Positions 1,620 through 60,583 of a stretch of 64,000 bases of DNA are shown one piece after another; position 1 is the first letter of the stretch, and each line of letters starts with the position of its first letter. Source of the DNA: Betaproteobacteria bacterium. GTDB taxonomy: Bacteria > Pseudomonadota > Gammaproteobacteria > Burkholderiales > Casimicrobiaceae. Location: contig JAAFIS010000005.1 in NCBI GenBank assembly GCA_013298695.1, positions 1 to 64,000 of the forward strand. Reading direction: 5' to 3'. The notes under the pieces were generated by a model. That model made no database searches. It had not been told where the DNA came from and saw only the letters and a program-made list of their open reading frames with translations. The translations under genes and the position numbers were made by a program.

Positions 1620-1702
1620 GCCCAATTGAATTGGGCGAAAACGTTGGATAGGATGGTTTTCGGTTTGTTGCCTGATACGAAGCTGCGCCCAGTAAAGTAG
1701 GC
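1620..1702. repeat. Two-palindrome intergenic element, copy 1
   Basis: The first palindrome, GCCCAATTGAATTGGGC (1620-1636), is a perfect 8-1-8 inverted repeat. The second, GCCCAGTAAAGTAGGC (1687-1702), is weaker. Their right ends are 66 bp apart. The element lies between rbgA and the GST gene, which converge. The rest of the 207-bp gap shows nothing else. Confidence 0.7.
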
Positions 1703-1777
1703 GAATTAGCAGAATTGCTGTACCTCGTGGATACAGCTGATGCGTTCCTTTCGCTCGCGAATATTTAACGGCAGAGT

Positions 1778-2437
1778 TCAACCCTTTTGCGCAGCGTTCG
1801 GCGCTGCCTCATGCTTTTCTGCTTCGAGCGTTTCCCGAGCGCTAGCGGCTTTGTACGCGGCGCGATCCCGCATGCGTCCGATGTAGGCCAAACATGCATC
1901 GCCCACACCTTCGAGCTTCGCCGACAGCGCCCAGGTGAGGCAATGCGTGGTCACGATGTCTGCGAGTGTGAATGCGTCGCCCGCAATGAATTGGCGCGCT
2001 GCGAGTGTTTTTTCGATGGGTCGAATCGCTCGCGCGACTTGCCACATCGCGGTTGGTTCGAGTTGCGGCACGCGCCTGTCTTCGGGCAGCGCGAAGCGAT
2101 GTTGGGCGATGGCCCAGAGATGCGGCTCGAGTTCTGTCACGGCGTAGAAAACCCATCGATACATCTCGCCGCGCTCCGCCAAACTCTCCGGCAACAATTT
2201 TGATTGCGGAAACTTGTCTGCGACATAGAACACCTGCGCCATCGACTCGGACAACGTGAGTCCGCCGTCAACCAGCACCGGGATTTTTCCCGCAGGATTT
2301 ACCGCTTTAAAGGCGGGCAAATGCCCTTCGCCTTTCATCATCCAGATCCGCTGATACTCATAGCTTGCGCCCGCTTCTTCAAGCGCCCAAGCGACGCGGA
2401 TCGAGCGTGAGTTCTTGCTGCCATAGAGTTTCATCAT
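1778..2437 (-). CDS. Glutathione S-transferase family protein
   Basis: This is a cytosolic GST-type protein of 219 residues. The N-terminal thioredoxin-like half has the pattern LYGSKNSRSIRVAWALEE, with a serine-rich glutathione-binding loop. The segment GKIPVLVDGGLTLSES is the usual cis-proline and glutathione-contacting strand. The C-terminal helical half contains FTLADIVTTH, the conserved N-capping region. I placed the start at the first of two adjacent ATG codons (2437) because it has an AAAGGA ribosome binding site just upstream; a longer in-frame version would overlap the next gene. It lies 46 bases downstream of the EamA transporter on the same strand. The substrate is unknown. Confidence 0.85.
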   Translation of the reverse strand: MMKLYGSKNSRSIRVAWALEEAGASYEYQRIWMMKGEGHLPAFKAVNPAGKIPVLVDGGLTLSESMAQVFYVADKFPQSKLLPESLAERGEMYRWVFYAVTELEPHLWAIAQHRFALPEDRRVPQLEPTAMWQVARAIRPIEKTLAARQFIAGDAFTLADIVTTHCLTWALSAKLEGVGDACLAYIGRMRDRAAYKAASARETLEAEKHEAAPNAAQKG

Positions 2438-2483
2438 TGCATCCTTTCGTTCGATCGCACGCGCCAAACCACCTGTAGCGACT

Positions 2484-3389
2484 CTAGTTTGCCGGAAAGT
2501 CGGCACGAGCAGCGACCGGTTTCTTTTTGGGAACGACTTCATTGATCACCAGCGCGCCGATCACAATCGCTGCGCCAATCAAGGTGTTGGAGGAGGGGGT
2601 TTCCGACGCGAAGAGCCACGTCCACAACGGCCCAATGATGACCTCCAGCATCCCCAAGAGCGCCGTTTCTGGAGCGCTTAGGTGTTTAGCCGCGCGAATC
2701 AACAATACACACGGAATCGCGAGTTGAAAGACACCGAGCACCGCCAATAGCAGTACATCTTTTGCGCTCGCGGCGAACGGCAGGGATAGCGGCAAAGTGA
2801 TGACGCAAGAGAGCAGCGCGCCGATCAAGACCGCGGGCGCGAGATCCACTGCACCGCCGCTTTTTTTAATGTTGATCAAATTTACCGCAGCCGCGATGGG
2901 CACGCCAAACGCGATCATCATGCCAAGCGCCGCGCCGCTGCTGCCTTCGAGTGCGCTGCCAAACATGATTGCCATGCCGATGAAAGCGATGCCAATTGCG
3001 AGCCACGTTCGCCCGAGCACGGGCGACTTCAACACGAGCCACGCTAGCAGCGCGGTGATCAGGGGCGACAATGAATTCACGATCAACGTGTTGGCGGTGG
3101 AAGTGAGCGTTAGCGCAATCATGAAGCAGGTAAACATGACGGCCCAGCAAATGCCGGAGATAAAACCCGCGCGTCCGCTCGCGCGCACATGGGTAACGGT
3201 GCCTCTTATGCCTTCGCTATAGATGAACCAAATAATCATCGCGACGGCGCAGAAAAAGCTACGCCAAAACGTGACTTCAAACGATTTTGCACTGTCGAGA
3301 TGGCGTGTAAACACGCCCGCGATACTCCAGAGCAAACAGCAAATTACGAGCGTGAAAACGGCGCGGCGATGAGAAGATGAATCGGTCAT
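2484..3389 (-). CDS. EamA/DMT-family membrane transporter
   Basis: This 301-residue integral membrane protein has about ten hydrophobic segments in two halves, as in the 10-TM drug/metabolite transporter superfamily (EamA domains). The second half ends with LGMLEVIIGPLWTWLF, followed by a typical EamA C-terminal helix and a basic tail (PKKKP). Such proteins usually export metabolites or amino acids; the substrate cannot be read from sequence. It is probably co-transcribed with the GST gene downstream and lies 43 bases beyond the MFS gene upstream, so all three may form one minus-strand unit. Confidence 0.85.
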   Translation of the reverse strand: MTDSSSHRRAVFTLVICCLLWSIAGVFTRHLDSAKSFEVTFWRSFFCAVAMIIWFIYSEGIRGTVTHVRASGRAGFISGICWAVMFTCFMIALTLTSTANTLIVNSLSPLITALLAWLVLKSPVLGRTWLAIGIAFIGMAIMFGSALEGSSGAALGMMIAFGVPIAAAVNLINIKKSGGAVDLAPAVLIGALLSCVITLPLSLPFAASAKDVLLLAVLGVFQLAIPCVLLIRAAKHLSAPETALLGMLEVIIGPLWTWLFASETPSSNTLIGAAIVIGALVINEVVPKKKPVAARADFPAN

Positions 3390-3432
3390 AGTAGAAGTTT
3401 ATGTTTTCGCCTGTGTACGAAGGAAAGAACCG

Positions 3433-4656
3433 CTAGTGCGCGCCACTTCCATCATTGCGAACTTCCGGAATCGCCAAACATGACAAACCGGCCGCGATAA
3501 ATAGCACGACGCTTGCCAACAGCGAAGCGCGCCATCCGGCAATTCCGCTCGCGCTTTCAATCAGCGCGCCGCCTGCGACGAATCCCGAACCCATGCCGAT
3601 TAAGAAAACGGTCATGCTCCAGGTGAACGCCTCGGTGGAATACTCAACGGGGGTTAACTTCCCGAGCTGGAGCGACAAAGCCGTAATCATTGGCCCAAAC
3701 GCAAGCCCCGCCAGCACGCACATGAGTACGTACGGCGCAAAGGTATCGGTCGCCGCCATCAACGCAGCGCCCGCGGCAAGCCACGCTGCGCAGAAGAGAA
3801 TTTGTCTGTTGAGCGGCATTGTGATGTGCCATGTTCCATAGACGAATCCAGCAATCGCGCTGGGGATCGAGAGCGCCGCGAAGAGCCAGCCGACCAGTGC
3901 TGTATTGCCGACAAACGCAGCAAAAGCAGGCAGCGAAATTTCCAGTAAGCCAATACCCGTGCCAAACATCGTCGATAGCAATAGCGCGCGACGTACTGCA
4001 GACACTTTGAGCGGCCCCAGCCAATGGCGCACGACATCCTCGCCGTTCTCTACCGTGCCCCAGCGCGTCATTGCGCCAGATTGTGAGAAGAGGAAAGTGC
4101 CGATTAGCGCAAGCGCGGCAGAGCCGAGCACGGCCGTTGCTGCGTGCCCGGTGAGCAGAGCCACCGAAACTGCGAGCGGACCTAGGGTGAAGGCGAGTTC
4201 CATCACGATCGCTTCAAGCGCGAATGCCGTTTGCTTTTGCGCATCGCTCATCGAAGATTTGCGATACATCGCGCGAATGGTCATCGACACTGGCGGGAAA
4301 GTCCCGCCGGCAGCAAACGCACCGATCATTATGGCAAGTAACGGCCATTGCAGCTGCACGGCTAGCACCACAAAACAAAGCGCAAGCGCGCAAGCAACGC
4401 CCAGCGGGAACATCACGCGACGCGGTCCATTTTGATCAATGAAGCGCCCCACGATCGGCGCCTGCAATGCTGCAGCAATCATGTACGCCGCGCTCACCGA
4501 CCCCGCTGAAGCAAATGAATTCGTTTGTGATTGCACGAGCATCGTCAGCGCCAAGGCATTCATGCCCGCAGGCAACCGCGGCATGATGGAGGACAACAAA
4601 ATTCGGCGAAGTTCGCGGTCGGCGAAGAAAGATTTGTAGGGGGAGAGGTTAATCAA
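3433..4656 (-). CDS. MFS transporter, 12 TM
   Basis: The protein has 407 residues with about twelve hydrophobic segments and a central basic or charged loop around residues 200-215, as in major facilitator superfamily exporters. The loop after the second helix reads GRFIDQNGPRR, the MFS signature A type (G-x-x-x-D-x-x-G-x-R-R). The substrate is unknown; overall it resembles sugar- or drug-efflux MFS proteins. The only reasonable full-length start is TTG at 4656 and no clear ribosome binding site precedes it, so the start is uncertain. A two-palindrome repeat lies just upstream. Confidence 0.85.
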   Translation of the reverse strand: MINLSPYKSFFADRELRRILLSSIMPRLPAGMNALALTMLVQSQTNSFASAGSVSAAYMIAAALQAPIVGRFIDQNGPRRVMFPLGVACALALCFVVLAVQLQWPLLAIMIGAFAAGGTFPPVSMTIRAMYRKSSMSDAQKQTAFALEAIVMELAFTLGPLAVSVALLTGHAATAVLGSAALALIGTFLFSQSGAMTRWGTVENGEDVVRHWLGPLKVSAVRRALLLSTMFGTGIGLLEISLPAFAAFVGNTALVGWLFAALSIPSAIAGFVYGTWHITMPLNRQILFCAAWLAAGAALMAATDTFAPYVLMCVLAGLAFGPMITALSLQLGKLTPVEYSTEAFTWSMTVFLIGMGSGFVAGGALIESASGIAGWRASLLASVVLFIAAGLSCLAIPEVRNDGSGAH

Positions 4657-4684
4657 AGAGTAAGTGACAGCTTTATATGTGATC

Positions 4685-4769
4685 GCCCAATTAAATTCGG
4701 GCTCGAACCGGGGAAAGCTAATTTATTGAAAAGTATAGAAATTGTGATCATCCACGCATGTTATTGGGC
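4685..4769. repeat. Two-palindrome intergenic element, copy 2
   Basis: The first palindrome is GCCCAATTAAATTCGGGC (4685-4702). The second is degenerate and keeps only TTATTGGGC at its right end (4753-4769). The right ends are 67 bp apart. The element sits just upstream of the MFS gene in a 459-bp gap (4657-5115). The rest of the gap, apart from the palindromic element at 4998-5110, shows no gene. Confidence 0.6.
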
Positions 4770-4997
4770 GACAGCATATTAAGTTGGAATAACACCTTCC
4801 TGCAGGTGCGATGCGCTTGCGGGCAGCACGTACGAGGCACGCAACGCGGGTTCGCGAGCGGCGGGGTGATTATCGTAGATTGCGACGTTGCCAACGCGTT
4901 CGTGGATCGACGGCCCTTGGTCCCGTCCTCGACAGAGGACTACCACTGACGGACTTGATGCGATGCATTAACGAAATCAAGTCGGGCCATTGCTGTT

Positions 4998-5110: not shown

Positions 5111-5115
5111 GACTG

Positions 5116-6801: not shown

Positions 6802-6989
6802 TTGGAGTGCACCGTTGATATTCGTGACAGGTCGATTTTTTCAAAAATCGGTTCACGCTGTTGCACGGATAGCGGCTGTGAAGGACTACCAAAGCCGTAG
6901 TCAGCGTTCTGTTCCAGGTAAACGCTCTCGAACTACGAAATCGCCCACGGCTTAACCGTCGGCAGTCGCAAGCGGGTTTGAACGCTGCG

Positions 6990-14127: not shown

Positions 14128-14387
14128 AGCCTATCCTTTTCGTGGTGAGCGCTGCACGGGGCCCCGTAGTCGATTCAAGTAAAAAATCGGCACTCTCGCG
14201 GGATACGTGAAGCTGTTGGTCAACTGCGCCGCGATGATTTCGCGAGATGTGCAGCTGCTTGCGGTAACCCTTAATTATGCCCTAAAACACAACTCAATAC
14301 GCCGGTCAGGCTGCTCGAATTACGTAGAGCCAGCGCTCAAGGCGGCAGCAACAAGCCCTTTCACGATATTTAGCATCCTCGGTAAAA

Positions 14388-14471
14388 CGACTATTTCATT
14401 GGGCGATTACGGGATATTGTATATTTTTCGGCTACTGAAGTAAATCCAGTTGTAGCCCAATTAAATCGTTT
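14388..14471. repeat. Two-palindrome intergenic element, copy 3
   Basis: The first unit is degenerate and ends in CATTGGGC (14388-14404). The second is GCCCAATTAAATCGTTT (14455-14471). The right ends are 67 bp apart. It lies in the 596-bp gap between the divergent rpmE2 and htpX genes (14128-14723). The gap is AT-rich around the element and otherwise shows no clear gene. Confidence 0.5.
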
Positions 14472-14723
14472 CTAAATCAAGATAGCTGTTGAACAACTTT
14501 ACGCGTTTTTTAGTGTTTTCGGGTTTCCGCCGCTAATCAATATTTGAAACTCGCGGTATCGTTCATACATTAGATGAACTCGGCCAGATTGCAATCGGCT
14601 GGAATGGACCATGTTCTGGAAGAAACTTCCTTCCCAGGGTCACCGAACCAAACCGACGGTCAACTAATCGAACGCGTTGCTCACAATCACAACAGTTTTG
14701 ACGTCACGGAGACAGTCACACTT

Positions 14724-15739: not shown

Positions 15740-17773
15740 ATGCATTTCTACGCGGTTGTCGCGCTCTCAGCGTTCTTATTGTTTCTGGTTCAACCGCTCA
15801 TCGCAAAGCAAATCCTGCCGTGGTTTGGCGGCTCCTCCGCAGTTTGGACAACGTGCATGTTGTTCTTCCAGGCTGCGCTGCTGCTCGGGTACGCATATGC
15901 CGACGCAACGCCGCGCGCGCTCGGGCCGAAGCGACAGCCGATCGCACATATCGTGCTCGCGCTTCTCTGTTTGCTCGTGCTGCCCATCCTCGCGCCCGAG
16001 TCGCTCAAACCGTTTGGCACCGAAGAGCCCATCTCGCGTATTTTGATGCTGCTTGCGGTCACCATTGGTTTGCCGTATTTGTTGCTTTCGACGACGAGCC
16101 CGCTGATTCAAAGCTATTTCGCGCGGCTTAAACCTGGGCGAGATCCGTATCGCTTGTTTGCGCTTTCAAACGCGGCGTCTCTACTTGCACTCGTTGCTTA
16201 TCCGCTGGTCATCGAGCCATTTGTGGGGACGCGGCAACAGGCGATCGGCTGGTCGATTGCCTTCGCGCTTTACGTGTTGTTGCTCGTTACGCTCGCATGG
16301 CGAGTTTCACGCTCAGATGGTTCTAAGCCCAATGAAATTGGCGTTAGCGACGAAGTGCTGAGTAAGCCTACGGCATCGCTGCAATGGCGCTGGATTGCGC
16401 TTTCTGCTACTGGCTCGATGCTGCTGCTTTCGGTGTCGAACCACATCACGCAAAACGTCGCGTCGGTGCCGCTGCTATGGGTGTTGCCGCTGGTGCTCTA
16501 TTTGTTGACCTTCATTCTGACGTTTGATGGCAGCGGTTGGTACAAACCGCAATACTACGTTGGCCCGTTTTTCATCGCAGTGATTGCGATGAGTTTCTTG
16601 CTGGTGGACAAAACCTATCAGTTCGACTTGGTGGTGCAAACCTCGGTGTTCTGCGTGGGTTTATTCGTCGTGTGCATGGTGTGCCATGGTGAATTGGTTT
16701 TGGCCAAACCTGCGCCCGCGCTGCTGACGCGGTTTTATTTGTTAATTTCAGTGGGCGGCGCACTGGGTGCGCTAGTGGTCAGCGTTGTCGCGCCGCTTGC
16801 GTTTCCCACTTTCCTTGAAACGCCGATTGCGTTGTTCGTTGCAGCGGCTCTGTTTGTTCCCGTTGCAGCGGGCACTCAACCGGTTTTGAAGTGGGTGGCG
16901 GTCGCTTTGGCGATCGGGGTTGCCGCGACCGGGGCCTATTTCTGGAAACTTGAACACAACAATTCGTTGGAAGTTTCCCGTAATTTTTATGGTGTGATGA
17001 AAATCAAATCCTACGATGATCCGGGCACCGAGAATCACCTCGTGCGCATGGTGCACGGTGCGATTCTTCACGGCGAACAATATACGTTTCCAACCTGGCG
17101 AAAAGAGCCCACAACGTATTACACGCCGACCTCTGGATTTGGACGCGCGGTAAATCAAAAACGCATCGAAGCGCCGCGAACGGCTGCAGGCATTCGCATC
17201 GGCATGATTGGGCTCGGTGTGGGTACCGTCGCCGCGTATTGCCGCGATGTTGATACGTGTCGCATCTATGAAATCAACGCCGAAGTGGAGCGGCTTGCCC
17301 GCACACATTTCACCTATCTCAGCGACAGCAAATCCAAGCTAGATGTAATCATCGGCGACGCACGTCTCTCGCTCGAGCGTGAAGCGAGCAATCAGTTCAA
17401 CGTGCTCGCCGTTGATGCGTTTTCCGGCGACTCCATACCGATGCATCTGATTACGGACGACGCAGTTCGAGTGTTCATGGCACAGCTCGCAGGCAACGGC
17501 ATCCTCGCCTATCACGTGTCGAATCGATTCTTGAACTTGCCGCCCGTGCTCGCCGAGATTTCCGCGAAATTAGGCTTGGCTGGCGTCGTTGTCGAGGACC
17601 CTTCGCAGGCAAACAATGCGCTGCATTCAACGAGCACCTGGGTATTGCTAGCAAAAGATGCCGAGGCGCTGAAAGGGATTGAAGCGTCGAAGCCGCTGGA
17701 GCGAATTTCCGGGACTCCGCTATGGTCCGATGACTTCAACAATCTGCTGTCTGTTATCAAGTGGCAGCATTAG
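15740..17773 (+). CDS. Fused multi-TM/spermidine synthase-like protein
   Basis: The protein has 677 residues. The first 415 or so hold ten or more hydrophobic segments, beginning FYAVVALSAFLLFLVQPLIA, with SSAVWTTCMLFFQA and LLSTTSPLIQSYFA typical of this class. The last 250 form a soluble spermidine synthase-like Rossmann fold, with IGMIGLGVGTVAAY (SAM-binding glycine loop), YEINAEV (acidic residue after strand 2) and DVIIGDARLSLE, then VLAVDAFSGDSIP. Such fusions are widespread, but few have been tested; some relatives make polyamines or act in membrane processes. The function here is unknown. It stands alone. Confidence 0.85.
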   Translation: MHFYAVVALSAFLLFLVQPLIAKQILPWFGGSSAVWTTCMLFFQAALLLGYAYADATPRALGPKRQPIAHIVLALLCLLVLPILAPESLKPFGTEEPISRILMLLAVTIGLPYLLLSTTSPLIQSYFARLKPGRDPYRLFALSNAASLLALVAYPLVIEPFVGTRQQAIGWSIAFALYVLLLVTLAWRVSRSDGSKPNEIGVSDEVLSKPTASLQWRWIALSATGSMLLLSVSNHITQNVASVPLLWVLPLVLYLLTFILTFDGSGWYKPQYYVGPFFIAVIAMSFLLVDKTYQFDLVVQTSVFCVGLFVVCMVCHGELVLAKPAPALLTRFYLLISVGGALGALVVSVVAPLAFPTFLETPIALFVAAALFVPVAAGTQPVLKWVAVALAIGVAATGAYFWKLEHNNSLEVSRNFYGVMKIKSYDDPGTENHLVRMVHGAILHGEQYTFPTWRKEPTTYYTPTSGFGRAVNQKRIEAPRTAAGIRIGMIGLGVGTVAAYCRDVDTCRIYEINAEVERLARTHFTYLSDSKSKLDVIIGDARLSLEREASNQFNVLAVDAFSGDSIPMHLITDDAVRVFMAQLAGNGILAYHVSNRFLNLPPVLAEISAKLGLAGVVVEDPSQANNALHSTSTWVLLAKDAEALKGIEASKPLERISGTPLWSDDFNNLLSVIKWQH

Positions 17774-17836: not shown

Positions 17837-18079
17837 ATGAAATTTGCTCTAGCTATTTCTTCACTAACTATCGCTGTCGCGCTCGGAGGATGTGCTGCCG
17901 CGCCGCAGACAGCGACCGCTGACGCCCAGCGCACAGCAGCCAACAACGAACGCTGCAACGTAACCGGAAGCAATCTGCCGCGCAAAGATTGTCGCGGTGA
18001 TGTCAGTGTGTTGCCACCATCTGCGACCGAAAAGTTGCTCGTTCAGCCACCGGGTCAGATTGACGGCGTACGTCGGTAG
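17837..18079 (+). CDS. Small predicted lipoprotein
   Basis: This 80-residue protein begins MKFALAISSLTIAVALGGC, a lipoprotein signal with lipobox L-G-G-C and lipidated Cys19. The mature part is short, hydrophilic and has two more cysteines (ERCNVTGSNLPRKDC), possibly a disulfide. GGAG lies ten bases before ATG 17837. I do not recognise a family beyond 'small lipoprotein'. It is in a single-gene setting between the spermidine synthase-like gene and trhO. Confidence 0.75.
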   Translation: MKFALAISSLTIAVALGGCAAAPQTATADAQRTAANNERCNVTGSNLPRKDCRGDVSVLPPSATEKLLVQPPGQIDGVRR

Positions 18080-20872: not shown

Positions 20873-20896
20873 CGCATCACAGCTTCACACTTGATC

Positions 20897-20979
20897 GCCC
20901 AATAAATACGGGCGATTGGATGTTTTCACCTATCTTTCGAAAATAGACATAACCGTTCCATTGCCCAAAATAAATGGGC
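20897..20979. repeat. Two-palindrome intergenic element, copy 4
   Basis: The palindromes are GCCCAATAAATACGGGC (20897-20913) and GCCCAAAATAAATGGGC (20963-20979), exactly 66 bp apart at both ends. Between them is a TTTCGAAAA centre. It lies between the convergent KAS III-like and P450 genes. Confidence 0.75.
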
Positions 20980-21000
20980 GATGCATGATGAAGCTAATGC

Positions 21001-27676: not shown

Positions 27677-27797
27677 CCGCGCAGTCTAGCGACCGGCACG
27701 TCGGTCGGATTCACCCGCTAGCGGTCGCCCCAACGTGAGTACATTAGGTGGAACATAGCGATACTGCGTGCGCAGACTATTAAAAAAATACTGAAAC

Positions 27798-27879
27798 GCC
27801 TATTTATATGGGCGCGGTGCGGTAAATATGTAATTTTCGATAAGTAATAAAAAACTGCTATATGCCCAATTAAATAGGC
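27798..27879. repeat. Two-palindrome intergenic element, copy 5
   Basis: The units are GCCTATTTATATGGGC (27798-27813) and GCCCAATTAAATAGGC (27864-27879), with a 66-bp offset at both ends. The spacer holds TTTTCGATAA near its middle. It lies in an AT-rich divergent gap between the Gfo/Idh and LysR genes. Confidence 0.75.
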
Positions 27880-27924
27880 GCTGCACGATCATTTTAAATA
27901 ACTCACAATGATAGGTCTGGTCTG

Positions 27925-36325: not shown

Positions 36326-36396
36326 TGAAATGGTTGCTCTACTGCAGCGTGTCTTTGCATGGTGTGTTCGACTATAAAGCAGCTTTACATAGAAAA

Positions 36397-36479
36397 GCCC
36401 AATTTAATTGGGCTAAAGAGCTAAAAAAGTGTCGTATCGTTAATGCAGCTATAACTTACTCAAGCCCAGTAAAAAAGGC
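36397..36479. repeat. Two-palindrome intergenic element, copy 6
   Basis: The first palindrome, GCCCAATTTAATTGGGC (36397-36413), is perfect and extends by one base on each side. The second is GCCCAGTAAAAAAGGC (36464-36479). The right ends are 66 bp apart. It lies between the binding-protein stop and IclR; the 399-bp gap (36181-36579) holds only this and the operator. Confidence 0.75.
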
Positions 36480-36579
36480 CGTCTATCGATGGCGCTGTTA
36501 TCACAGCAAACAGCGGCAGGTTCTTTGTCCGTCAACGCACGCGGAGTTTCCCAGCGTGCGACTGACTGACGTTCGAGCA

Positions 36580-37836: not shown

Positions 37837-37970
37837 TTCCCTGACTTTCTGGTGATCACTGAAATACGTGGGGTTTAACTGCGAGGATTGAGCTATTGTT
37901 ATGCTGGTGTCATTCGCGATGCGTGCGCGCCGTGAAGACGTAAGATTCCGTTACAACTAAATTGATAAAA

Positions 37971-38054
37971 CTTCGATTATTGCGGGCGAAGATAGCGGTT
38001 TGTAAAAACCTTGATAATTAGCCCATATGGCATTGTTGCCCAATGAAGTAGGGC
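37971..38054. repeat. Two-palindrome intergenic element, copy 7
   Basis: The first unit is weak (TTATTGCGGGC at its right end, 37971-37987). The second is GCCCAATGAAGTAGGGC (38038-38054). The right ends are 67 bp apart. A further partial unit, TTAGCCCATATGG, lies between them. It is in the divergent 360-bp gap (37837-38196), which is otherwise featureless. Confidence 0.55.
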
Positions 38055-38196
38055 GGTTCGAGCGAAAGTTAAACTCAGATTATGCCTAATGTTCTTGATC
38101 CGTTTGCAACTTTGCAAGTTGCGAGCCATCCGGGATAGCTTCGAGCGAAGGCTCAAGCACCGCACCACCAACTACACACTTGCACGCAGTCAAACC

Positions 38197-40168: not shown

Positions 40169-40732
40169 ATGAACGCAACTGCTAACACCGCCGCGCCCAG
40201 CGCCGCCCAGCTGCGCGCCGAGCCCAGTGCCCGCGCCGCGTTTTCAGCGCCAGACGCTAACGCCCAAGATTATTGGGTGAAAGAGTCGAAAAAAGAAAAA
40301 GTCGGCATACCGCTTACGATCCGACGAGACACGAATGCGTGGCGCATGCAGGTTTGGATTTCATTTGCGATCGCTACGTTTCTGTGTGCAGTGGGGCTTG
40401 CCTACTTACCCGGCACTGATCTTGACCGCGCGTTTATGGTGATGGGCTATTTTTTCTGCCTATCAACGGCGTTTGTGCTTTCGAAATATGTGCGAGACAA
40501 CGCTGAAAAGAAAAGCGACACGCCAATGTTCGGCGCAGTAGTTTTCGTTGCCTTCGCCGCCGCGCTCGCACTGACCGCCTGGGGCTTGTACCGCATGAAT
40601 ATCGCCGATTCTTACAAGGCGTATTTGCTAGTCGGTTGGCTCTATCTCATCACCACCACCTTCACGCTGGCGAAGGCGCTGCGTGATGGTCACGAGGCCG
40701 ATCTTGCAGAAGCACAGGAATCTAGTCACTAG
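40169..40732 (+). CDS. YiaA/YiaB-type inner-membrane protein
   Basis: The 187 residues have an alanine-rich hydrophilic N-terminus (1-50) and then two copies of the YiaAB two-helix unit: WISFAIATFLCAVGLAYLPG with GYFFCLSTAFVLSKYVRDN, and VFVAFAAALALTAWGLYRM with VGWLYLITTTFTLAKALRD. Four membrane helices result. The E. coli YiaA and YiaB proteins are uncharacterised inner-membrane proteins. AAGGA precedes ATG 40169. It heads a three-gene plus-strand group with an STM0539-like and a DUF2145 gene. Confidence 0.85.
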   Translation: MNATANTAAPSAAQLRAEPSARAAFSAPDANAQDYWVKESKKEKVGIPLTIRRDTNAWRMQVWISFAIATFLCAVGLAYLPGTDLDRAFMVMGYFFCLSTAFVLSKYVRDNAEKKSDTPMFGAVVFVAFAAALALTAWGLYRMNIADSYKAYLLVGWLYLITTTFTLAKALRDGHEADLAEAQESSH

Positions 40733-46070: not shown

Positions 46071-46131
46071 AACCCGCCATTCTAGGTGGAGCGCAGGTTT
46101 GCGTTTGGCGTGCTGCGTCGCTCGTACGGGT

Positions 46132-46677
46132 TTAGAACGAAAACGCCGCTTTAAATGGGCTTAGATCAAATTTGGCGCCGGGATCGATTTTTCTACCAAA
46201 TGCTATTTCTGCGTGTGTAGTCATGGCATTCACTGAAAATGCAGCCTTCACTGAATCGGTGAGCGTGACGACAGATTGATACTGTTCCCGCGTAAACGCG
46301 GTTTCCGAATCGCCTTCAATTTCGATACCAACCGAAAAGTCGTTGCAGCGTTCGCGACCCCGCCAACAGGATACGCCTGCATGCCAGGCGCGCTTTCGCA
46401 GGTCCACGAATTGAACGATTTCGCCGGTCCGGCGCACAAAAAAGTGCGCGGAAACGCGAAGCGCTGATAGCTCAGCCAGCAACGGATCTTGCGCGTCGAT
46501 TTGATTGGTGAACAGTCGCGTTACGCCGTCGCCCGAGAAAACGCCTGCGGGCAAACTGATGTGATGCAGAACCATCAAATCTATTGAGGCGCCGTCCGGT
46601 CGATCGTCGAAATTCGGCGAATCGATGCGCGTTGCGTTTTTCAGCCAACCGCGCTCAAACTGTTGTTCGGTCGTCAT
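46132..46677 (-). CDS. ampD: 1,6-anhydro-N-acetylmuramyl-L-alanine amidase AmpD
   Basis: AmpD is a cytoplasmic zinc amidase of 181 residues that recycles murein fragments and so affects beta-lactamase control. Zinc and catalytic residues lie in LMVLHHISLPAG, WHAGVSCWRGRERCNDFSVG and THAEIAFGRKIDPG. The N-terminal RIDSPNFDDRP is a known AmpD feature. The gene is 16 bases downstream of pilR, a common betaproteobacterial link. Confidence 0.95.
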   Translation of the reverse strand: MTTEQQFERGWLKNATRIDSPNFDDRPDGASIDLMVLHHISLPAGVFSGDGVTRLFTNQIDAQDPLLAELSALRVSAHFFVRRTGEIVQFVDLRKRAWHAGVSCWRGRERCNDFSVGIEIEGDSETAFTREQYQSVVTLTDSVKAAFSVNAMTTHAEIAFGRKIDPGAKFDLSPFKAAFSF

Positions 46678-50521: not shown

Positions 50522-50571
50522 AATCAGCGAGTGACTTACTCGGCCGGGTTAAACGGGACTCTGTATAAAGT

Positions 50572-50654
50572 GCTGTTGTAGTTGGGGCAAAGGTCGTATT
50601 CGTCTTGTTGTTGACAAGTGATATTTTCAGCGGATGAGCCCAATTAAATAGACC
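50572..50654. repeat. Two-palindrome intergenic element, copy 8
   Basis: The first unit is weak (GTAGTTGGGGC at its right end, 50572-50588). The second is GCCCAATTAAATAGACC (50638-50654). The right ends are 66 bp apart. It lies between the convergent PhaM-like and ccmH genes. Confidence 0.55.
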
Positions 50655-50687
50655 GGACGGCTGAAGTGCAGCACGAGAATTACGCAG

Positions 50688-54230: not shown

Positions 54231-55115
54231 TTGATAGTTAGGGCTTATCGCGTCACGGCGCTCTTTTTTTCTGTGTTAACTGGAATTGCATACGCCGCGA
54301 ATGCGGCTCCTGGGCAAACAACGGCGGCGAACTCGCTGACGCAGCAATGTCAACAGCTCGGGAAGCTGCTCAAACTCCGCACCGACTCCGTTTGCGCGCC
54401 CGCTGCAAACGGCGCGATTTCAGTGGCGTCCAGCCATCAACAGCGCTCGATTTTTGCGGTGCGCCGCGGCGCAAAACTGTCGGAGCCGAGCGCCACGCGC
54501 GTCTTAATTTTGGGGGCGGTTCACGGCGACGAGTTGACGGCGGGCTGGCTTGCCTTGCAGTGGGCCGGCTTCGACGTGCCGCGCTCGCCGAAGCGTGATT
54601 ACGCTGTGCTGCATGTGCCGATTACCAATCCTGACGGGGTTTTCGAGACGAAGCCGAGCCGCGTGAACGGTCGCGGTGTCGACTTAAATCGAAATTTCCC
54701 CACGCCGAATTGGAAAGCGGAATCCGCAAAATGGTGGAACGAGAAAACCAAACGCGACCCGCGACGTTTTCCAGGCAACACTGCGGCCTCAGAGCACGAA
54801 ACTCGATACGTGATGCGGGTGATCGAAACGTTTCAACCGACGGTGGTCGTCTCGATCCATGCGCCACTCGGCGTGCTCGACTACGACGGCGGCGGTTTGC
54901 CACCCCAGCGCATTGGTTCGATCTGGCTCGACATGCTCGGCATCTATCCTGGAAGCCTCGGTCACTACGCGAGTCGAATCCGCGGCGTTCCCGTGCTGAC
55001 GGTTGAGTTGCCGCACGCGATTAACGCTGTCAACGATACAGAATCGAGAAAAATGTGGCGGGATTTGTTCGTCTGGATCGACAAATACTCAAATCTTGAT
55101 AGTCAGTCGAAATAA
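54231..55115 (+). CDS. Exported M14-family zinc carboxypeptidase/amidase (MpaA-like)
   Basis: The 294 residues start with a signal peptide (ending near AYAANA). The zinc site is H98/E101 (GAVHGDEL) and H210 (SIHAPLG), with E259 (TVELPHA) as catalytic base; DLNRNFP (151-157) binds substrate. The arrangement is like murein peptide amidase MpaA, which cuts the gamma-D-Glu-diaminopimelate bond, but MpaA is cytoplasmic while this protein is exported. I chose TTG 54231 with GGAAGAGG eight bases upstream; a GTG at 54204 is in frame. Confidence 0.85.
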   Translation: MIVRAYRVTALFFSVLTGIAYAANAAPGQTTAANSLTQQCQQLGKLLKLRTDSVCAPAANGAISVASSHQQRSIFAVRRGAKLSEPSATRVLILGAVHGDELTAGWLALQWAGFDVPRSPKRDYAVLHVPITNPDGVFETKPSRVNGRGVDLNRNFPTPNWKAESAKWWNEKTKRDPRRFPGNTAASEHETRYVMRVIETFQPTVVVSIHAPLGVLDYDGGGLPPQRIGSIWLDMLGIYPGSLGHYASRIRGVPVLTVELPHAINAVNDTESRKMWRDLFVWIDKYSNLDSQSK

Positions 55116-55120
55116 AGGAT

Positions 55121-55142
55121 TAGCCCAATTAAAATTGGGCTA
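55121..55142. repeat. Single palindrome overlapping a stop codon
   Basis: TAGCCCAATT (55121-55130) and AATTGGGCTA (55133-55142) form a perfect 10-2-10 palindrome. Its right arm contains the TAG stop of the methyltransferase on the minus strand. No second unit lies 66 bp away on either side. It is between two convergent genes. Confidence 0.85.
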
Positions 55143-56018
55143 CACGTTTTGAGCTGAAGATGTGTTCTGGCTTAAAAACCGACCAGCAAGCGCGCCGAGT
55201 CCGAATGTGTCGATCACGTCGTTGAGTTTCGCTTGCCCCTTTGCGCGCGGCAAATTCTTGAACTCGGCGATGATGAGTTCGTTTTTCATCGAATGTTCCC
55301 AACCCACAAGTTCGGTCACTGTGACCTTGTAGCCGCTTGCTTCAAGCCGTAAGCCGCGCAACACGTTGGTGATCTGCGCGCCAAACTCACGCGCTTGAAT
55401 CGGATGTTTCCAAAGTTCGGTGAGTGAATTTTTCGCCAGCGCGGTGCCCTTATCGTCCCGGAAAAACGCGGCGACTTCGGCTTGGCAGCATGGAACGAGC
55501 ACAACGTATTTGGCGCGTTTCGCAATCGCAAACGAAATCGCATCGTCAGTGGCGGTGTCGCACGCGTGAAGTGCGGTCACTACATCCACGGCGTCTGGAA
55601 TTTCGCTTGCATCAAGCGCGTTTGCCGCGCTCACATTCAAAAACGTCATGCCTTCAAATTTCGCTTCGCGCGCAAGCTCGCGTGCACGGGTGACCAGTTC
55701 GTCTCGCGTTTCAATGCCGTAGACCGCATGCGGTTTATCGAGCGATTTCAAAAAGCGGTCGTACAACATGAAACCAAGATACGACTTTCCCGAGCCGTGG
55801 TCGACGACAGAAATTTTCCCGCGCTCCGCCAATGTCGCTTCAATCAAGGGCTGCATGAATTGCAGCAAATGATTCACTTGCTTTAACTTGCGACGTGAAT
55901 CCTGATTGATCTTGTCGTCACGGGTGACGATGTGCAAGGCTTTGAGCAGTTCGATGGATTGGTCAGCGCGCAGGTTGAGCTGCTCGTGCAACGTCGGGAC
56001 GTTTTTATTCGTTTTCAC
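55140..56018 (-). CDS. Class I SAM-dependent methyltransferase (Methyltransf_32-like)
   Basis: The 292 residues contain ISVVDHGSGKSYLGFMLYD (SAM-binding loop), YGIETRDELV (acidic residue after strand 2), TALHACDTATDDAI, and VVLVPCCQAEV. The HACDTATD and PCCQ elements point to the Methyltransf_32 group, some of which modify RNA. The substrate is unknown. The GTG at 56018 is used; no ribosome binding site is clear. The ddl gene is divergent. Confidence 0.8.
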   Translation of the reverse strand: MKTNKNVPTLHEQLNLRADQSIELLKALHIVTRDDKINQDSRRKLKQVNHLLQFMQPLIEATLAERGKISVVDHGSGKSYLGFMLYDRFLKSLDKPHAVYGIETRDELVTRARELAREAKFEGMTFLNVSAANALDASEIPDAVDVVTALHACDTATDDAISFAIAKRAKYVVLVPCCQAEVAAFFRDDKGTALAKNSLTELWKHPIQAREFGAQITNVLRGLRLEASGYKVTVTELVGWEHSMKNELIIAEFKNLPRAKGQAKLNDVIDTFGLGALAGRFLSQNTSSAQNV

Positions 56019-56052
56019 TGACGAAGCATAGCGTGCCCATACAATTCAACTC

Positions 56053-57075: not shown

Positions 57076-57118
57076 AAAACGGACGCGCGGGAATGTCGCA
57101 ATAGCCATAGCGCGCTTC

Positions 57119-57201
57119 GTCCAAATTAATTGGGCGTGTCTTTGGTAAATGGAAATCCTCGATAAACTAGAAGATTCCATAGCAACCCCAGTAATAAGTG
57201 C
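57119..57201. repeat. Two-palindrome intergenic element, copy 9
   Basis: The first unit, GTCCAAATTAATTGGGC (57119-57135), has one weak arm. The second is CCCCAGTAATAAGTGC (57186-57201). The right ends are 66 bp apart, and CTCGATAAAC lies midway. It is between the convergent ddl and DUF6886 genes. Confidence 0.6.
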
Positions 57202-57219
57202 GTTCACCGCGAATAGTAG

Positions 57220-57717
57220 CTACGCTTCAGGCATCGCATTTCTCATTCGAATGCATGAAAACTCGAGCGCGGAGTTTTCAACTGCACGATGAATTGGCCA
57301 CAGCGATTCCACTGCGATTAGCTCCACACCGCAGTGCGAAAGCTCGGATTCGAGGTTCGTCGTACGTGTGATCGAAATCGGTTGCAAGGTCGCCGTCGAA
57401 TGAAAATATCCCGCGTTGATGTCAACGCATCTGAAGCTGCTCGACTCAAATTCGTACACATAAAGCGTGGTAACGGCGAGTCTCGCGCGCCAAGCGTTGC
57501 GATGGGTTGATGCTCCGAGCAGCTGTGAAACCAGTTCGCCGTCAGAATGCGTCCCGCGTCGCACGCACACCCGCGGACACTCGCGTGGCAGAAAATAATT
57601 GGGAAGATGGGCAGCGTCAATCGCCCACACCACGCGCTGTCCAGCGTCGGTAGGGCGCGGCGTGAAGTGTTCAATATTCGGCACTTCGCTGACGTGGAAA
57701 AGGGTTCTGCTTGCCAT
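57220..57717 (-). CDS. DUF6886-like protein
   Basis: The 165 residues begin MASRTLFHVSEVPNIEHF and contain VVWAIDAAHLPNYFLPRECP and RVCVRR, the start pattern of DUF6886 proteins, of unknown function. The rest is a compact fold with FHSTATLQPI near the C-terminus. ATG 57717 is used; ATG 57729 is four codons upstream and the frame is open further. It is divergent from the CopD-like gene, with about 107 bases between. Confidence 0.7.
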   Translation of the reverse strand: MASRTLFHVSEVPNIEHFTPRPTDAGQRVVWAIDAAHLPNYFLPRECPRVCVRRGTHSDGELVSQLLGASTHRNAWRARLAVTTLYVYEFESSSFRCVDINAGYFHSTATLQPISITRTTNLESELSHCGVELIAVESLWPIHRAVENSALEFSCIRMRNAMPEA

Positions 57718-57823
57718 GCGGATGGGCATATTTTCGTTAATGTCGGCGGCGCGGGCAACCGCGTATAGTGATTCTGAAGATAGCGCAGAGAATACGGAAC
57801 TTAACTTTTTGGCAGCGCCGCTC

Positions 57824-58294
57824 ATGATTTACAGCGTTCTTAAACTCGTGCATGTGTTCTCAATCACCGTCTGGATTGGCGGAATGATTTACGCGCTCTT
57901 CTTTTTGCGGCCATCGCTTGGCGTGTTGGAGCCGCCGCAGCGTGTGAAGCTAATGCACGAAACGCTGGGCCGATTCTTTAAAGCCGTGCTCATTTTTTCA
58001 ACGCTCGCCGTCCTTAGCGGCTTGTGGATGATCGGGCGCGTTGCAAAGGAAACGGTGCAAGCGGGCGGAAACTTCACGTGGCCCACTGCGTGGTGGGTGA
58101 TGGCCGGGCTCGGCATGTTGATGTATTTCATTTTTATGCACATTCGTTTTGCGCTGTACAAACGACTTCAACGTGCGGTCGTGGCGAGTGATTGGGCCGC
58201 GGGCGGCAAAGCGCTCGAGCAGATTCGTGTTTGGGTAACGGTCAACATCGTAATCGGCATTTTGATCATGGCTGTGGCTTATCTGTTGCGCTAA
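57824..58294 (+). CDS. CopD-domain membrane protein, 4 TM
   Basis: The 156 residues have four hydrophobic segments and start MIYSVLKLVHVFSITVWIGG, with conserved H in the first helix and again in MHIRFALYKR. This is the CopD/HemJ-like four-helix fold. Copper resistance CopD is longer; this short type is of unknown role and could bind copper or heme. The upstream frame is open to 57599, but ATG 57824 gives the natural N-terminus. Confidence 0.8.
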   Translation: MIYSVLKLVHVFSITVWIGGMIYALFFLRPSLGVLEPPQRVKLMHETLGRFFKAVLIFSTLAVLSGLWMIGRVAKETVQAGGNFTWPTAWWVMAGLGMLMYFIFMHIRFALYKRLQRAVVASDWAAGGKALEQIRVWVTVNIVIGILIMAVAYLLR

Positions 58295-58359
58295 CGGGTA
58301 ACTTCCACCTGCGCGCTCTACTGTAGGAAAATAGCGAGTTAGCGTTATTAAGCATTGCC

Positions 58360-60492
58360 ATGAGTTTGCCGCGTCACCATCTTGAATTGCTCGCCCCTGC
58401 ACGTGATGTCACTATTGGGCGCGAAGCGGTGTTGCATGGCGCCGACGCGGTGTACATCGGTGGCCCTGCGTTTGGCGCACGCACCAAAGCCGACAATTCG
58501 GTGGCTGATATCGCCGAGCTCTGCAAGTTCGCACACCGATTCAATTCAAGAATCTTTGTTACTGTCAACACCATTCTTCACGACAGTGAATTAGAGCCGG
58601 CACGCAAACTGATTCATCAGCTCTACGACGCAGGTGTTGATGCGCTCATCGTGCAGGACATGGGCATTCTCGAACTCGACATTCCGCCGATTGCGCTACA
58701 CGCGTCGACCCAGTGCGATATTCGAACGCTGGAAAAAGCAGAGTTTTTGAGTCATGCGGGTTTCTCGCAGTTGGTGCTTGCGCGCGAACTTACGCTCACT
58801 CAAATCGCCAAAATGCGCGCGGCGATTCGTGACGACGTTGCGCTTGAATTCTTCGTTCATGGCGCGCTCTGCGTCGCGTTTTCGGGCAACTGCTACATCA
58901 GCGAAGCGCACACCGGACGCAGCGCGAATCGCGGCTCTTGCTCGCAGGAGTGTCGATTGCCATACACCCTGGTCGATCAAAACGGCGCAGTAGTCGCTTT
59001 TGATAAACATCTGCTTTCGATGAAAGACAACGATCAAAGCGCGAACCTTCGTTTATTGATCGACGCGGGCATTCGTAGCTTCAAAATCGAAGGTCGCTAT
59101 AAAGATCTGTCATATGTGAAAAACGTCACGGCGCACTATCGGCAACTGCTCGACGAAATTCTCGAAGAACGCCCAGAGTTGCAGGCCGCGTCGACCGGAC
59201 GCTGCGCCTTCACGTTCACACCCGACCCAGCGCGCGCATTCAACCGCAGCAGCACGGATTATTTCGTGAACGGCCGGCAGGGCGACATCGGCGCGTTTGA
59301 TACGCCCGTGCATGCGGGGCTCGCAGTGGCTCGTGTGAAACGTATCTCTACAGGCGCGATCGAGGTCGACACGCTCGACGAACATGATGAGCTCGATGCG
59401 GCAACAGCGGAAGTAGCGTTATCTGCGGTGAGTAAAAACGCGGATGACCGCCACGAAGTGCGCACTCATAAAGTCAGCAACACCCATTCGACCAAAGAAA
59501 TTCACGCGACGTTTGCCAACGGCGACGGACTCACGTACTTCAACGGTCGCGAGCTGCAGGGCTTGCAGATCAACGTCGCGAAACGCGTCGGCAATCAAGA
59601 TTCTGTATGGCGCTTAGAGCCGAACGCGAAGTTAAACGAATTGCCCGGTCTGAAAACGGGCGTTATGCTGCACCGCAATCGCGATCACGCTTGGGAGCAA
59701 ACGCTTGCGCGCGCGTCTAGCGAGCGAAAAATTCGGGTGACGATGGTGTTTTCTGAATCCGAAGACGGATACGCGCTGGTCGTCAGCGATGGCAGCGGTA
59801 ACGTGGCGCGCGCGACAGCAATCCACAAAAGAGAAGCGGCAAACGACGTCCCCAAAGCGGAAACCACGCTGCGTGAAAATTTGCGGAAGCTGGGCACGAC
59901 GATTTACGCTGTGAAAGAAAGTGATATCCGTTTGCATTGGTCGCAGGTGTCATTTGTGCCCGCGTCGGTCGCAAACTCGCTGCGGCGCGACGCGATTGCA
60001 GAGCTGGATGCCGCGCGCGCGGAAACGTTTGTGCGGTGGTCGCGGTTCGAGCCAACTCAACCACTGAGGCCCTATCCCAGCGAATCGCTAAGTTTTCTTG
60101 CGAACGTTTACAACCAAGCCGCACGCGCCTTTTATGCAAAGCACGGTGTGACGATGATCGACGCCGCTTACGAAATGCATCAAGAGGCGGGCGAGGTGCC
60201 GCTCATGATCACCAAGCACTGTTTGCGCTTTGCGTTCAACCTGTGTCCAAAACAAGCCAAGGGCGTTCAAGGCGTGCAAGGCCAGATCCGCGCCGAACCC
60301 ATGACACTGATTTCTAGCGGCGAAAAATTGACGCTCAAGTTCGATTGCAAACCCTGTGAAATGCACGTCGTCGGCAAGATACGCCCGCAGATTTTGAAGT
60401 CACCGCCGCCGTCAGTGGCGCTGAGTCCGAACGAGATAAAACCCGTTGCGTTTCATCCGCGCGGTTCTTTTGAAAAGCAGAAGCATCTTTAG
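58360..60492 (+). CDS. rlhA: U32 family protein, RlhA-like (23S rRNA C2501 hydroxylation)
   Basis: The 710 residues have the U32 core (residues 5-340) with LLAPARDVTIGREAVLHGAD and FVHGALCVAFSGNCYISEAH, then GRSANRGSCSQECRLPY, whose cysteines hold the iron-sulfur centre proposed for this family. A C-terminal domain (400-690) ends in TKHCLRFAFNLCPKQA. Size and layout match RlhA (YdcP) of E. coli, which makes 5-hydroxycytidine in 23S rRNA. Old 'peptidase U32/collagenase' labels are not well founded. RlhA is the best match among U32 types but is unproven. Confidence 0.85.
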   Translation: MSLPRHHLELLAPARDVTIGREAVLHGADAVYIGGPAFGARTKADNSVADIAELCKFAHRFNSRIFVTVNTILHDSELEPARKLIHQLYDAGVDALIVQDMGILELDIPPIALHASTQCDIRTLEKAEFLSHAGFSQLVLARELTLTQIAKMRAAIRDDVALEFFVHGALCVAFSGNCYISEAHTGRSANRGSCSQECRLPYTLVDQNGAVVAFDKHLLSMKDNDQSANLRLLIDAGIRSFKIEGRYKDLSYVKNVTAHYRQLLDEILEERPELQAASTGRCAFTFTPDPARAFNRSSTDYFVNGRQGDIGAFDTPVHAGLAVARVKRISTGAIEVDTLDEHDELDAATAEVALSAVSKNADDRHEVRTHKVSNTHSTKEIHATFANGDGLTYFNGRELQGLQINVAKRVGNQDSVWRLEPNAKLNELPGLKTGVMLHRNRDHAWEQTLARASSERKIRVTMVFSESEDGYALVVSDGSGNVARATAIHKREAANDVPKAETTLRENLRKLGTTIYAVKESDIRLHWSQVSFVPASVANSLRRDAIAELDAARAETFVRWSRFEPTQPLRPYPSESLSFLANVYNQAARAFYAKHGVTMIDAAYEMHQEAGEVPLMITKHCLRFAFNLCPKQAKGVQGVQGQIRAEPMTLISSGEKLTLKFDCKPCEMHVVGKIRPQILKSPPPSVALSPNEIKPVAFHPRGSFEKQKHL

Positions 60493-60500
60493 CTCGTATA

Positions 60501-60583
60501 GCCCGTTTTTACTGGGCAAGCGTCGACAACGGATGTGTTTACGAGTTAACGTGTTTTTTGCCTATTAGCCCAATGCAATTGGC
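60501..60583. repeat. Two-palindrome intergenic element, copy 10 (reverse orientation)
   Basis: The units are GCCCGTTTTTACTGGGC (60501-60517) and GCCCAATGCAATTGGC (60568-60583), with right ends 66 bp apart. Read on the other strand, the first unit is GCCCAGTAAAAACGGGC, like the weak unit of copies 1 and 6. It sits in a 344-bp gap (60493-60836) with nothing else visible. Confidence 0.7.

What the first reader, a model, noticed from the sequence alone, without database searches (positions are those of the whole stretch)
1620..60583. Ten intergenic elements made of two palindromes at a fixed 66-67 bp offset
Ten intergenic sites (starts near 1620, 4685, 14388, 20897, 27798, 36397, 37971, 50572, 57119 and 60501) carry two 16-18 bp palindromes or remnants, built from GCCC, an AT-rich centre and GGGC. 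The right ends of the two units are 66 or 67 bp apart in all ten, while the DNA between is little conserved. All are intergenic, in convergent, divergent and co-directional gaps. A fixed distance with drifting sequence suggests selection or a transposition unit of defined size. I do not recognise the family; it may be REP/MITE-like, or a distributed binding site for a looping or nucleoid protein.
Basis: seen in the sequence. Interest (0 to 1): 0.72.

Follow-up and report, generated by a model that had tools for sequence, protein, structure and literature searches.

The report
Chromosome-wide symmetric DNA-wrapping protein sites
The ten paired palindromes are real and belong to hundreds of copies of a symmetric, roughly 118-base DNA site that stays in place over long evolutionary times and looks built to be wrapped around a protein, perhaps DNA gyrase, rather than being a jumping element.

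Summary
In detail: all ten sites match a profile, and palindrome partners 67 bp apart stand out. The palindromes are part of a ~118-bp dyad: CAGCT end, palindrome, central TCGA, palindrome, AGCTG end. Finds: 154 in 864 kb, 50 in a held-out 400 kb, 75 in 481 kb of relative G002; 0 in reversed sequence at the same cut-off. 16 of 17 genus genomes match a sequence-only model; outside the genus 1 of 63, weakly.

It is not a recent mobile repeat. Of 95 comparable gaps, 37 carry it in both G000 and G002, 5 in one, 53 in neither. No two of 154 copies exceed 59% identity. Genic copies show no element-sized insertion. Pairing covariation is weak. Letters shift genome-wide between species while AT tracts about 10 bp apart keep their place: a DNA-wrapping signature. 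Copies lie just after stop codons and are under-dispersed in four segments (medians 4.7-5.8 kb), but not in the raw held-out one.

Best reading: maintained protein-wrapping sites (0.75). Gyrase is one leading candidate (0.3), unproven.

The parts
1603..1720 (.). element 1, convergent gap
   Evidence: profile E 1.2e-14
4668..4786 (.). element 2, tandem gap (1 bp longer)
   Evidence: profile E 3.1e-9
14371..14488 (.). element 3, divergent gap
   Evidence: profile E 2.1e-13
20880..20996 (.). element 4, convergent gap (1 bp shorter); element also in G002's orthologous gap
   Evidence: profile E 1.0e-13
27780..27897 (.). element 5, divergent gap
   Evidence: profile E 3.2e-12
36380..36497 (.). element 6, tandem gap; element also in G002's orthologous gap
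   Evidence: profile E 3.7e-16
37954..38071 (.). element 7, divergent gap; element also in G002's orthologous gap
   Evidence: profile E 2.0e-11
50554..50671 (.). element 8, convergent gap; element also in G002's orthologous gap
   Evidence: profile E 1.2e-6
57102..57219 (.). element 9, tandem gap
   Evidence: profile E 1.6e-8
60484..60601 (.). element 10, tandem gap; element also at this gap in G002 and G010
   Evidence: profile E 1.1e-11
55039..55156 (.). additional weaker element across the ends of two convergent genes
   Evidence: profile E 2.0e-4
16243..16360 (.). additional weak match inside a predicted gene (15740-17773)
   Evidence: profile E 1.7e-3; could be chance
40245..40362 (.). 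additional weak match inside a predicted gene (40169-40732)
   Evidence: profile E 6.1e-4; could be chance
46127..46244 (.). additional weak match at the 3' end of a predicted gene (46132-46677)
   Evidence: profile E 1.6e-3; could be chance
36397..36413 (.). example left palindrome, GCCCAATTTAATTGGGC
   Evidence: seen directly
36464..36480 (.). example right palindrome (degenerate), 67 bp on
   Evidence: seen directly

Best explanation
Each element is a double-stranded DNA recognition site about 118 bp long, symmetric about a central 4 bp (TCGA), on which the DNA is wrapped round a two-fold symmetric protein. SHOWN here by computation: the anatomy; the sharing of positions with G002; the species-wide shift of the letters while AT tracts (about 3, 13, 23, 33, 44 and 53 bp from the dyad) keep their place; the placement just after stop codons; genic copies without an element-sized insertion where a homologue could be compared. 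INFERRED: that selection keeps the sites because a protein binds and wraps them, and that the binding organises DNA topology or the nucleoid at intervals of about 5-6 kb. One leading candidate for the protein is DNA gyrase, which wraps ~130 bp symmetrically about a 4-bp staggered cut with phased G/C variation and is enriched downstream of transcribed operons in E. coli.
For: Dyad anatomy, with information near 0 outside the ends and in most spacer columns. AT minima at similar distances in six species, best arm period between 9 and 11.5 bp 9.6-10.1, permutation p 0 to 0.004 of 500. Orthologous gaps of at least 100 bp in G000/G002: 37 both, 4 G000 only, 1 G002 only, 53 neither, Fisher 1.1e-20 (with a laxer G002 cut-off 37/4/3/51, p 2.5e-18). 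Best identity between any two of 154 copies 0.59, column-shuffled null up to 0.56. Little pairing constraint; 59 G-T v 59 A-C mismatches in 53 tandem-gap elements. Element edge a median 31 bp from a stop codon and 115 bp from a start in G000, 20 and 147.5 in G002. Spacing CV 0.45-0.58 in four segments against null means of 0.77-0.98. Gyrase: E. coli motif 130 bp, symmetric, 10.75-bp GC phasing, cleavage enriched downstream of highly transcribed operons (PMC6379681, passages); at the gyrase cut annotated in phage Mu the element's flank profile (18-60 bp) correlates 0.60, top 0.8% of Mu positions, the best of several scores tried.
Against: The raw held-out segment is not regular (CV 1.10, p 0.83 and 0.95 against two nulls) because of six element-free stretches of 15.9-55 kb; only the remaining 43 of 49 spacings are under-dispersed (p 0.002), with a cut-off chosen after seeing them. 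No binding protein is identified. Copies in G005, G010, G011 and G015 were found with a G000+G002 profile, which favours the same register. With the whole-element transform G010's strongest period is 7.5 bp. Some pairing statistics are mildly positive (P2 hairpin z 2.4 and 2.7). Against gyrase: other scores of the Mu cut are weaker (whole GC profile rank 685 of 36,584; single-species GC profiles rank 253 to 3,410; flanks by log-odds rank 1,681; letter profile rank 9,274), and within 18 bp of the dyad the Mu site disagrees (r -0.56). GyrA's C-terminal part is 91% identical in G000 and G002 and not accelerated. The GyrA repeat is found in 27 of 30 genomes searched, but the element essentially in one genus.
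Confidence: 0.75

Rival explanations
1. The reader of the site is an unknown, fast-evolving nucleoid protein of this genus that binds the palindromes directly and bends or bridges DNA; gyrase is not involved. (A sub-case of the wrapping-site reading.)
For: Letters of the palindromes differ between species across the sampled copies (G000 gcCCaATTtaATTGGGC, G002 tAgcCC...tTtaat.gGGGCtA, G010 GCC.Tat.AAATAtGGc) while the architecture stays. Essentially confined to the genus and not found in G016. GyrA shows no matching change.
Against: No candidate gene found. HU/IHF genes number 2-3 in the 15 genus genomes examined, no extra paralogue; other DNA-binding families were not surveyed. Length and 4-bp dyad are also what gyrase would give.
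Confidence: 0.4
2. A mobile repeat (REP/REPIN, MITE or ERIC-like) that spread by transposition and is now fixed.
For: Hundreds of mostly intergenic, palindromic copies with inverted ends; one Y1 transposase match in the genome.
Against: 37 of 41 comparable G000 sites shared with G002, 1-3 G002-only; no copies over 59% identical; of 39 genic copies 23 could be compared with a homologue, none shows an insertion of about 39 residues in the aligned part and 15 have no gap (three loci, six of the 23, carry the element in both species and so do not test insertion; of the other 17, 11 have no gap); conservation is confined to motif columns, unlike a decaying master copy.
Confidence: 0.06
3. An RNA-level element: transcription terminator or mRNA 3' hairpin.
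For: Lies just after stop codons and is denser in convergent gaps; RNA folding energy of 80 elements lower than simple shuffles (-29.6 v -22.0), as a dyad must give; in G002 terminator-like hairpins are slightly commoner with the element (16 of 72 v 25 of 141).
Against: Pairing close to independence; G-T mismatches equal A-C on the sense strand, and in G000 terminator-like hairpins occur at 21 of 128 stop-side ends with an element and 45 of 235 without; copies inside genes and in divergent gaps; no Rfam match in the window.
Confidence: 0.05
4. A self-recognition or DNA-uptake mark spread by molecular drive, as uptake-sequence dialects are.
For: Species-specific 'dialects', genic and intergenic copies and partly even spacing recall uptake sequences (dialects paper PMC3630211 seen as a listing with the start of its abstract only).
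Against: Uptake sequences are short, asymmetric and denser (recalled); a 118-bp dyad with 10-bp phasing is not explained; little turnover between G000 and G002.
Confidence: 0.06

Closest known systems
Strong gyrase sites (phage Mu SGS) and the E. coli 130-bp gyrase motif (PMC6379681, passages read)
   Same: Length, dyad about a 4-bp centre, ~10-bp phased GC/AT variation in the flanks, preference for the region after genes; flank profile correlates with the Mu site (top 0.8%).
   Different: The E. coli motif is called degenerate; here letters are strongly constrained in hundreds of copies and differ between species. Period about 10.0 against 10.75; the centre does not fit the Mu site and other scores of that site are weaker.
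REP / BIME / REPIN elements with RAYT transposases
   Same: Intergenic, palindromic, paired, hundreds of copies; some BIME-2 are bound by gyrase (PMC6379681, passages).
   Different: No sign of recent copying, few empty sites against G002, little stem covariation, much longer dyad, also inside genes.
ERIC and other long palindromic MITEs (recalled)
   Same: About 120-130 bp, overall inverted repeat, intergenic.
   Different: Those are sequence-conserved mobile repeats; here only motif columns are conserved and compared genic copies carry no element-sized insertion.
DNA uptake sequence dialects (PMC3630211, listing and start of abstract only)
   Same: Genome-wide motif with species dialects.
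   Different: Short asymmetric motif read by a pilin (recalled), no wrapping architecture.

Membership tests
REP/REPIN | near-identical copies showing recent spread | tested here: not met
   best pair 0.59 identity among 154 copies
REP/REPIN | stem kept by compensatory changes | tested here: not met
   z between -2.4 and 2.7 over the helices tested in two species, no consistent excess
REP/REPIN | cognate RAYT (Y1) transposase, nearby or correlated | tested here: inconclusive
   1 weak match in G000; 19 of 24 genomes have some, also genomes without the element
MITE | insertion into pre-existing sequence / empty sites | tested here: not met
   no ~39-residue insertion in the aligned part of 23 of 39 genic copies; 37 of 41 sites shared with G002; 4 G000-only gaps were not examined further
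MITE | target-site duplication | not tested
   flanking columns carry ~0 information; no explicit search
Strong gyrase site | ~130 bp, two-fold symmetric about a 4-bp cut | tested here: inconclusive
   118-bp dyad about a 4-bp TCGA is there; whether it is cut is unknown
Strong gyrase site | flanks with ~10-11 bp phased GC content | tested here: met
   arm period 9.6-10.1 in six species; the paper gives 10.75
Strong gyrase site | profile recognises a known site | tested here: inconclusive
   Mu SGS: flank correlation top 0.8%, flank log-odds top 4.6%, whole GC profile top 2-3%, letters rank 9,274 of 36,584, centre disagrees
Strong gyrase site | gyrase binding/cleavage | not testable with these tools
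   needs an experiment
Intrinsic terminator | stable hairpin plus T tract on the sense strand | tested here: not met
   21 of 128 v 45 of 235 in G000, 16 of 72 v 25 of 141 in G002
Known Rfam RNA | match at gathering score | tested here: not met
   0 in the window
DNA uptake sequence | short motif read by a competence pilin | not tested
   length differs (118 bp); no uptake genes were sought

The most novel reading that the evidence does not exclude
This genus has a bacterial chromosome-organising system of its own: some 600 spaced wrapping sites per genome, kept at fixed places, whose recognition code is rewritten genome-wide in each species together with a fast-evolving protein that reads it.
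Probability: 0.35. Interest if true: 0.92.

Novelty: new variant of a known kind. Interest (0 to 1): 0.78.

Why it matters
If right, it is a natural array of hundreds of pre-positioned, strongly specified DNA-wrapping sites with a built-in evolutionary experiment: the letters change between species while the bending pattern does not. That would let one separate direct readout from shape readout for a wrapping protein, and ask whether spacing of such sites sets the size of supercoiling domains in a bacterial chromosome. It also warns that paired palindromes with a fixed offset need not be REP or MITE repeats.

Tried and rejected
REP/RAYT: the Y1 transposase search gave one weak match here and others in genomes without the element. 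RNA: Rfam found nothing in the window; covariation and wobble tests gave no consistent support. Extra HU/IHF paralogue: none in the 15 genus genomes searched. Extra gyrase wrapping repeats in G000: none beyond the six of one gene; accelerated GyrA C-terminal part: none. Spread outside the genus: an 18-base paired pattern gave 3 matches in the genome-contig collection, about the chance number (3.7 by my arithmetic), where the own genome may be left out; a plasmid search with one element gave nothing. The 80-genome search used stricter filters that lose weak matches and scored at most 42 candidates per genome. Position sharing with G005, G010, G011, G015 and G016 could not be tested well: 1-5 comparable gaps each; G010 agrees at one site, G011 shares one site with G000 but has one that G000 lacks and two that G002 lacks, and G016 lacks one site each of G000 and G002. 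Profiles for G005, G010, G011 and G015 rest on 15-21 copies, so their information content is inflated. Bit score does not depend on distance to the nearest neighbour. Genic copies in C12 do not sit in longer host intervals than random points (p 0.22; C1 p 0.01).
Full report
CHECK OF THE OBSERVATION. In 864 kb of this genome the palindrome GCCCAATTNAATTGGGC occurs far above one Markov shuffle per segment, and among sites with at most 4 mismatches the distance to a neighbour within 200 bp is 67 bp in 26 cases and 66 bp in 4; six other distances occur once each and two are 1-bp self-shifts. Over the whole 4.08-Mb genome there are 164 forward matches to GCCCAATTNAATNGGGC with at most one mismatch and none for the reversed pattern. 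Of 58 pairs chosen with offsets of 65-68 bp, 42 are at 67, 8 at 66, 6 at 68 and 2 at 65 (this selection allowed only those offsets).

ANATOMY. Iterated profiles show a larger dyad: CAGCT, about 12 bp, palindrome one (17 bp), GA, 21 bp, TCGA, 21 bp, TC, palindrome two, about 12 bp, AGCTG. Information is near zero outside the ends and in most spacer columns. A symmetric 134-column profile finds 154 copies at E<=0.01 in the 864 kb and 0 in the reversed sequence. In a further 400 kb not used for training it finds 50, again with 0 in the reversed control. Scaled up, that is about 650 copies per genome (my arithmetic from 204 in 1.264 Mb). The ten sites of the finding are among them, with four weaker ones in the window.

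DISTRIBUTION AMONG GENOMES. A sequence-only model built from G000 and G002 copies was run on 80 genomes with strict filters. 16 of 17 in the genus match: 12, the own genome included, gave the full 42 matches that the tool would score (both strands counted), G007 29, G003 23, G008 10, G012 8 and G016 none. Of 31 genomes from other genera of the family one has two weak matches (G065, best E 0.002), and none of 32 from the rest of the order matches. An exact 18-base paired pattern in the genome-contig collection gave 3 hits, about chance.

POSITION IS INHERITED, SEQUENCE IS HARDLY. G002 is about 80% identical in protein (median of 310 reciprocal best hits). Of 95 orthologous gaps of at least 100 bp in both, 37 carry the element in both, 4 only in G000, 1 only in G002 and 53 in neither, using species-specific profiles (with a laxer G002 threshold 37/4/3/51). 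Five of the ten window elements could be compared in this way, and all five have an element in G002's gap. Yet orthologous copies are only slightly more alike than unrelated ones: spacers 29% v 26.5% (z 1.9), motif columns 58.6% v 53.2% (z 4.7), from 27 ungapped pairs. Within G000 the best identity of any two of 154 copies is 59% (median best 51.5%; column-shuffled null median 48.9%, maximum 56%). The consensus has shifted across copies: G002 has tAgcCC...tTtaat.gGGGCtA where G000 has gcCCaATTtaATTGGGCgA, about the same centre, and G010, G005, G011 and G015 have other letters again. Those four sets were found with a G000+G002 profile, which favours a common register. Window element 60484 is also at the same gap in G002 and G010. 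Other comparisons with more distant species had too few shared gaps to be informative.

COPIES INSIDE GENES. 29 of 154 (G000), 8 of 50 (held-out) and 10 of 75 (G002) lie inside predicted genes. Of the 39 in the first and last sets, 23 could be compared with a homologue in the sampled species; none shows an insertion of the element's size in the aligned part and 15 have no gap. Six of the 23 belong to three loci where both species carry the element at the same place (C12:289980/B12:57828, C12:312278/B12:33634, C1:197175/B16:48792); these show conservation but do not test insertion; of the other 17, 11 have no gap. One copy lies in a stretch 93% identical to G002's protein without a gap (C1:84201). 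Several genic matches are weak (E up to 5e-3) and may be chance. Genes were predicted with a simple codon-usage finder written here.

NOT EVIDENTLY AN RNA STRUCTURE. Watson-Crick pairs between arms are close to the number expected from independent columns. Local palindrome z-scores are 1.2 and 2.4 (G000), -1.35 and 2.7 (G002); long-range palindrome pairing 1.7 and -0.55; inner spacers 1.6 and -2.4. In 53 tandem-gap elements read on the sense strand, G-T and A-C mismatches are equal (59 each). Terminator-like hairpins occur at 21 of 128 stop-side ends with the element and 45 of 235 without in G000, and 16 of 72 v 25 of 141 in G002.

WRAPPING SIGNATURE. In six species the AT-rich minima lie about 2.5-4.5, 12.5-13.5, 22.5-23.5, 30.5-37.5, 43.5-44.5 and 52.5-53.5 bp from the dyad, with a best arm period (9-11.5 bp range) of 9.6-10.1 bp (500 permutations each, p 0 to 0.004; in G011 a 7.9-bp period is marginally stronger), although letters differ. 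With the whole element transformed, five species peak at 9.3-9.6 bp and G010 at 7.5. This resembles the E. coli gyrase motif: 130 bp, symmetric about a 4-bp cut, with 10.75-bp phased flanks, and cleavage enriched downstream of highly transcribed operons (PMC6379681, passages read; PMC12393610, a preprint, passages). As an outside test I scanned phage Mu, whose record marks a gyrase cut at 17879-17880. The flank profile (18-60 bp) there correlates 0.60, in the top 0.8% of positions, but this is the best of several scores: whole-profile correlation top 3.2%, whole GC log-odds rank 685 of 36,584, single-species profiles rank 253 to 3,410, flank log-odds rank 1,681, centre log-odds rank 4,276, letter profile rank 9,274, and the central 18 bp either side disagree (r -0.56). 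GyrA in G000 is an ordinary six-repeat protein and its C-terminal part is not accelerated. I therefore hold gyrase as a leading but unproven reader.

PLACE ON THE CHROMOSOME. Intergenic copies have an edge a median 31 bp (G000) or 20 bp (G002) from a stop codon, and 115 or 147.5 bp from start codons; in tandem gaps 48 of 68 and 28 of 36 are nearer the stop. Convergent gaps of at least 90 bp are the densest in G000: C1 and C12 together have 30 elements in 60 convergent, 60 in 212 tandem and 20 in 79 divergent gaps; held-out 10 of 22, 28 of 134 and 3 of 32 gaps are occupied. In the small G002 segment B16 this is not so (3 in 11, 11 in 29, 3 in 11). Spacing is under-dispersed in four segments (CV 0.51, 0.58, 0.50, 0.45 against null means of 0.77-0.98; medians 4.7-5.8 kb; intergenic copies alone with gap classes preserved p 0 to 0.004). 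The raw held-out segment failed this test (CV 1.10, p 0.83 and 0.95): it contains six element-free stretches of 15.9-55 kb. Several of these have low coding scores and carry TonB-receptor, leucine-rich-repeat or PilY1 genes; another carries a usher gene and one holds lepA (ten proteins looked at). Its other 43 of 49 spacings are under-dispersed (CV 0.52 v 0.71, p 0.002), but with a 14-kb cut-off chosen after seeing the data; with the same cut-off C1, C12 and B12 give p 0 to 0.005 and the short segments W, B16 and B21 p 0.06-0.10. Genic copies lie farther from intergenic neighbours than random points (p 0.005 and 0.0095), though their host intervals are longer only in C1 (p 0.01; C12 p 0.22).

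CONCLUSION. The finding is real and larger than reported. It is best read as a genus-wide array of maintained, symmetric, protein-wrapping DNA sites. The literature searches made (listings) showed nothing that describes such an array; that is a statement about those searches only.

Noticed in passing
L151 (G000:C18:238200-241300): gyrA itself is followed directly after its stop codon by an element with a perfect palindrome. It fits the general placement rule; any feedback meaning is speculation.
   Followed up: no
G000:C12:386843-386994: Three palindromes in a row, each 67 bp apart, inside a predicted gene, the outermost degenerate.
   Followed up: no
G000:C12:211580 and 211889: Two elements only 309 bp apart in one convergent gap, where G002 has one.
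   Followed up: no
G000:C1:574381-629427: A 55-kb stretch without the element and with a below-average mean coding score (51.5 v 60.2 per kb); possibly acquired DNA.
   Followed up: partly
G016 and G008 (same genus, 2.5-2.6 Mb): The two smallest genomes of the genus lack or nearly lack the element and their GyrA is less like G000's than that of the other genus members compared; loss or late origin not resolved.
   Followed up: partly
G000:C1:100270-100635: Single weak Y1 transposase family match (E 2.6e-6).
   Followed up: no
864 kb of G000, GGGC-N53-GCCC: A secondary excess at a 53-bp inner gap (29 against 12 in the control), perhaps degenerate or variant copies.
   Followed up: no
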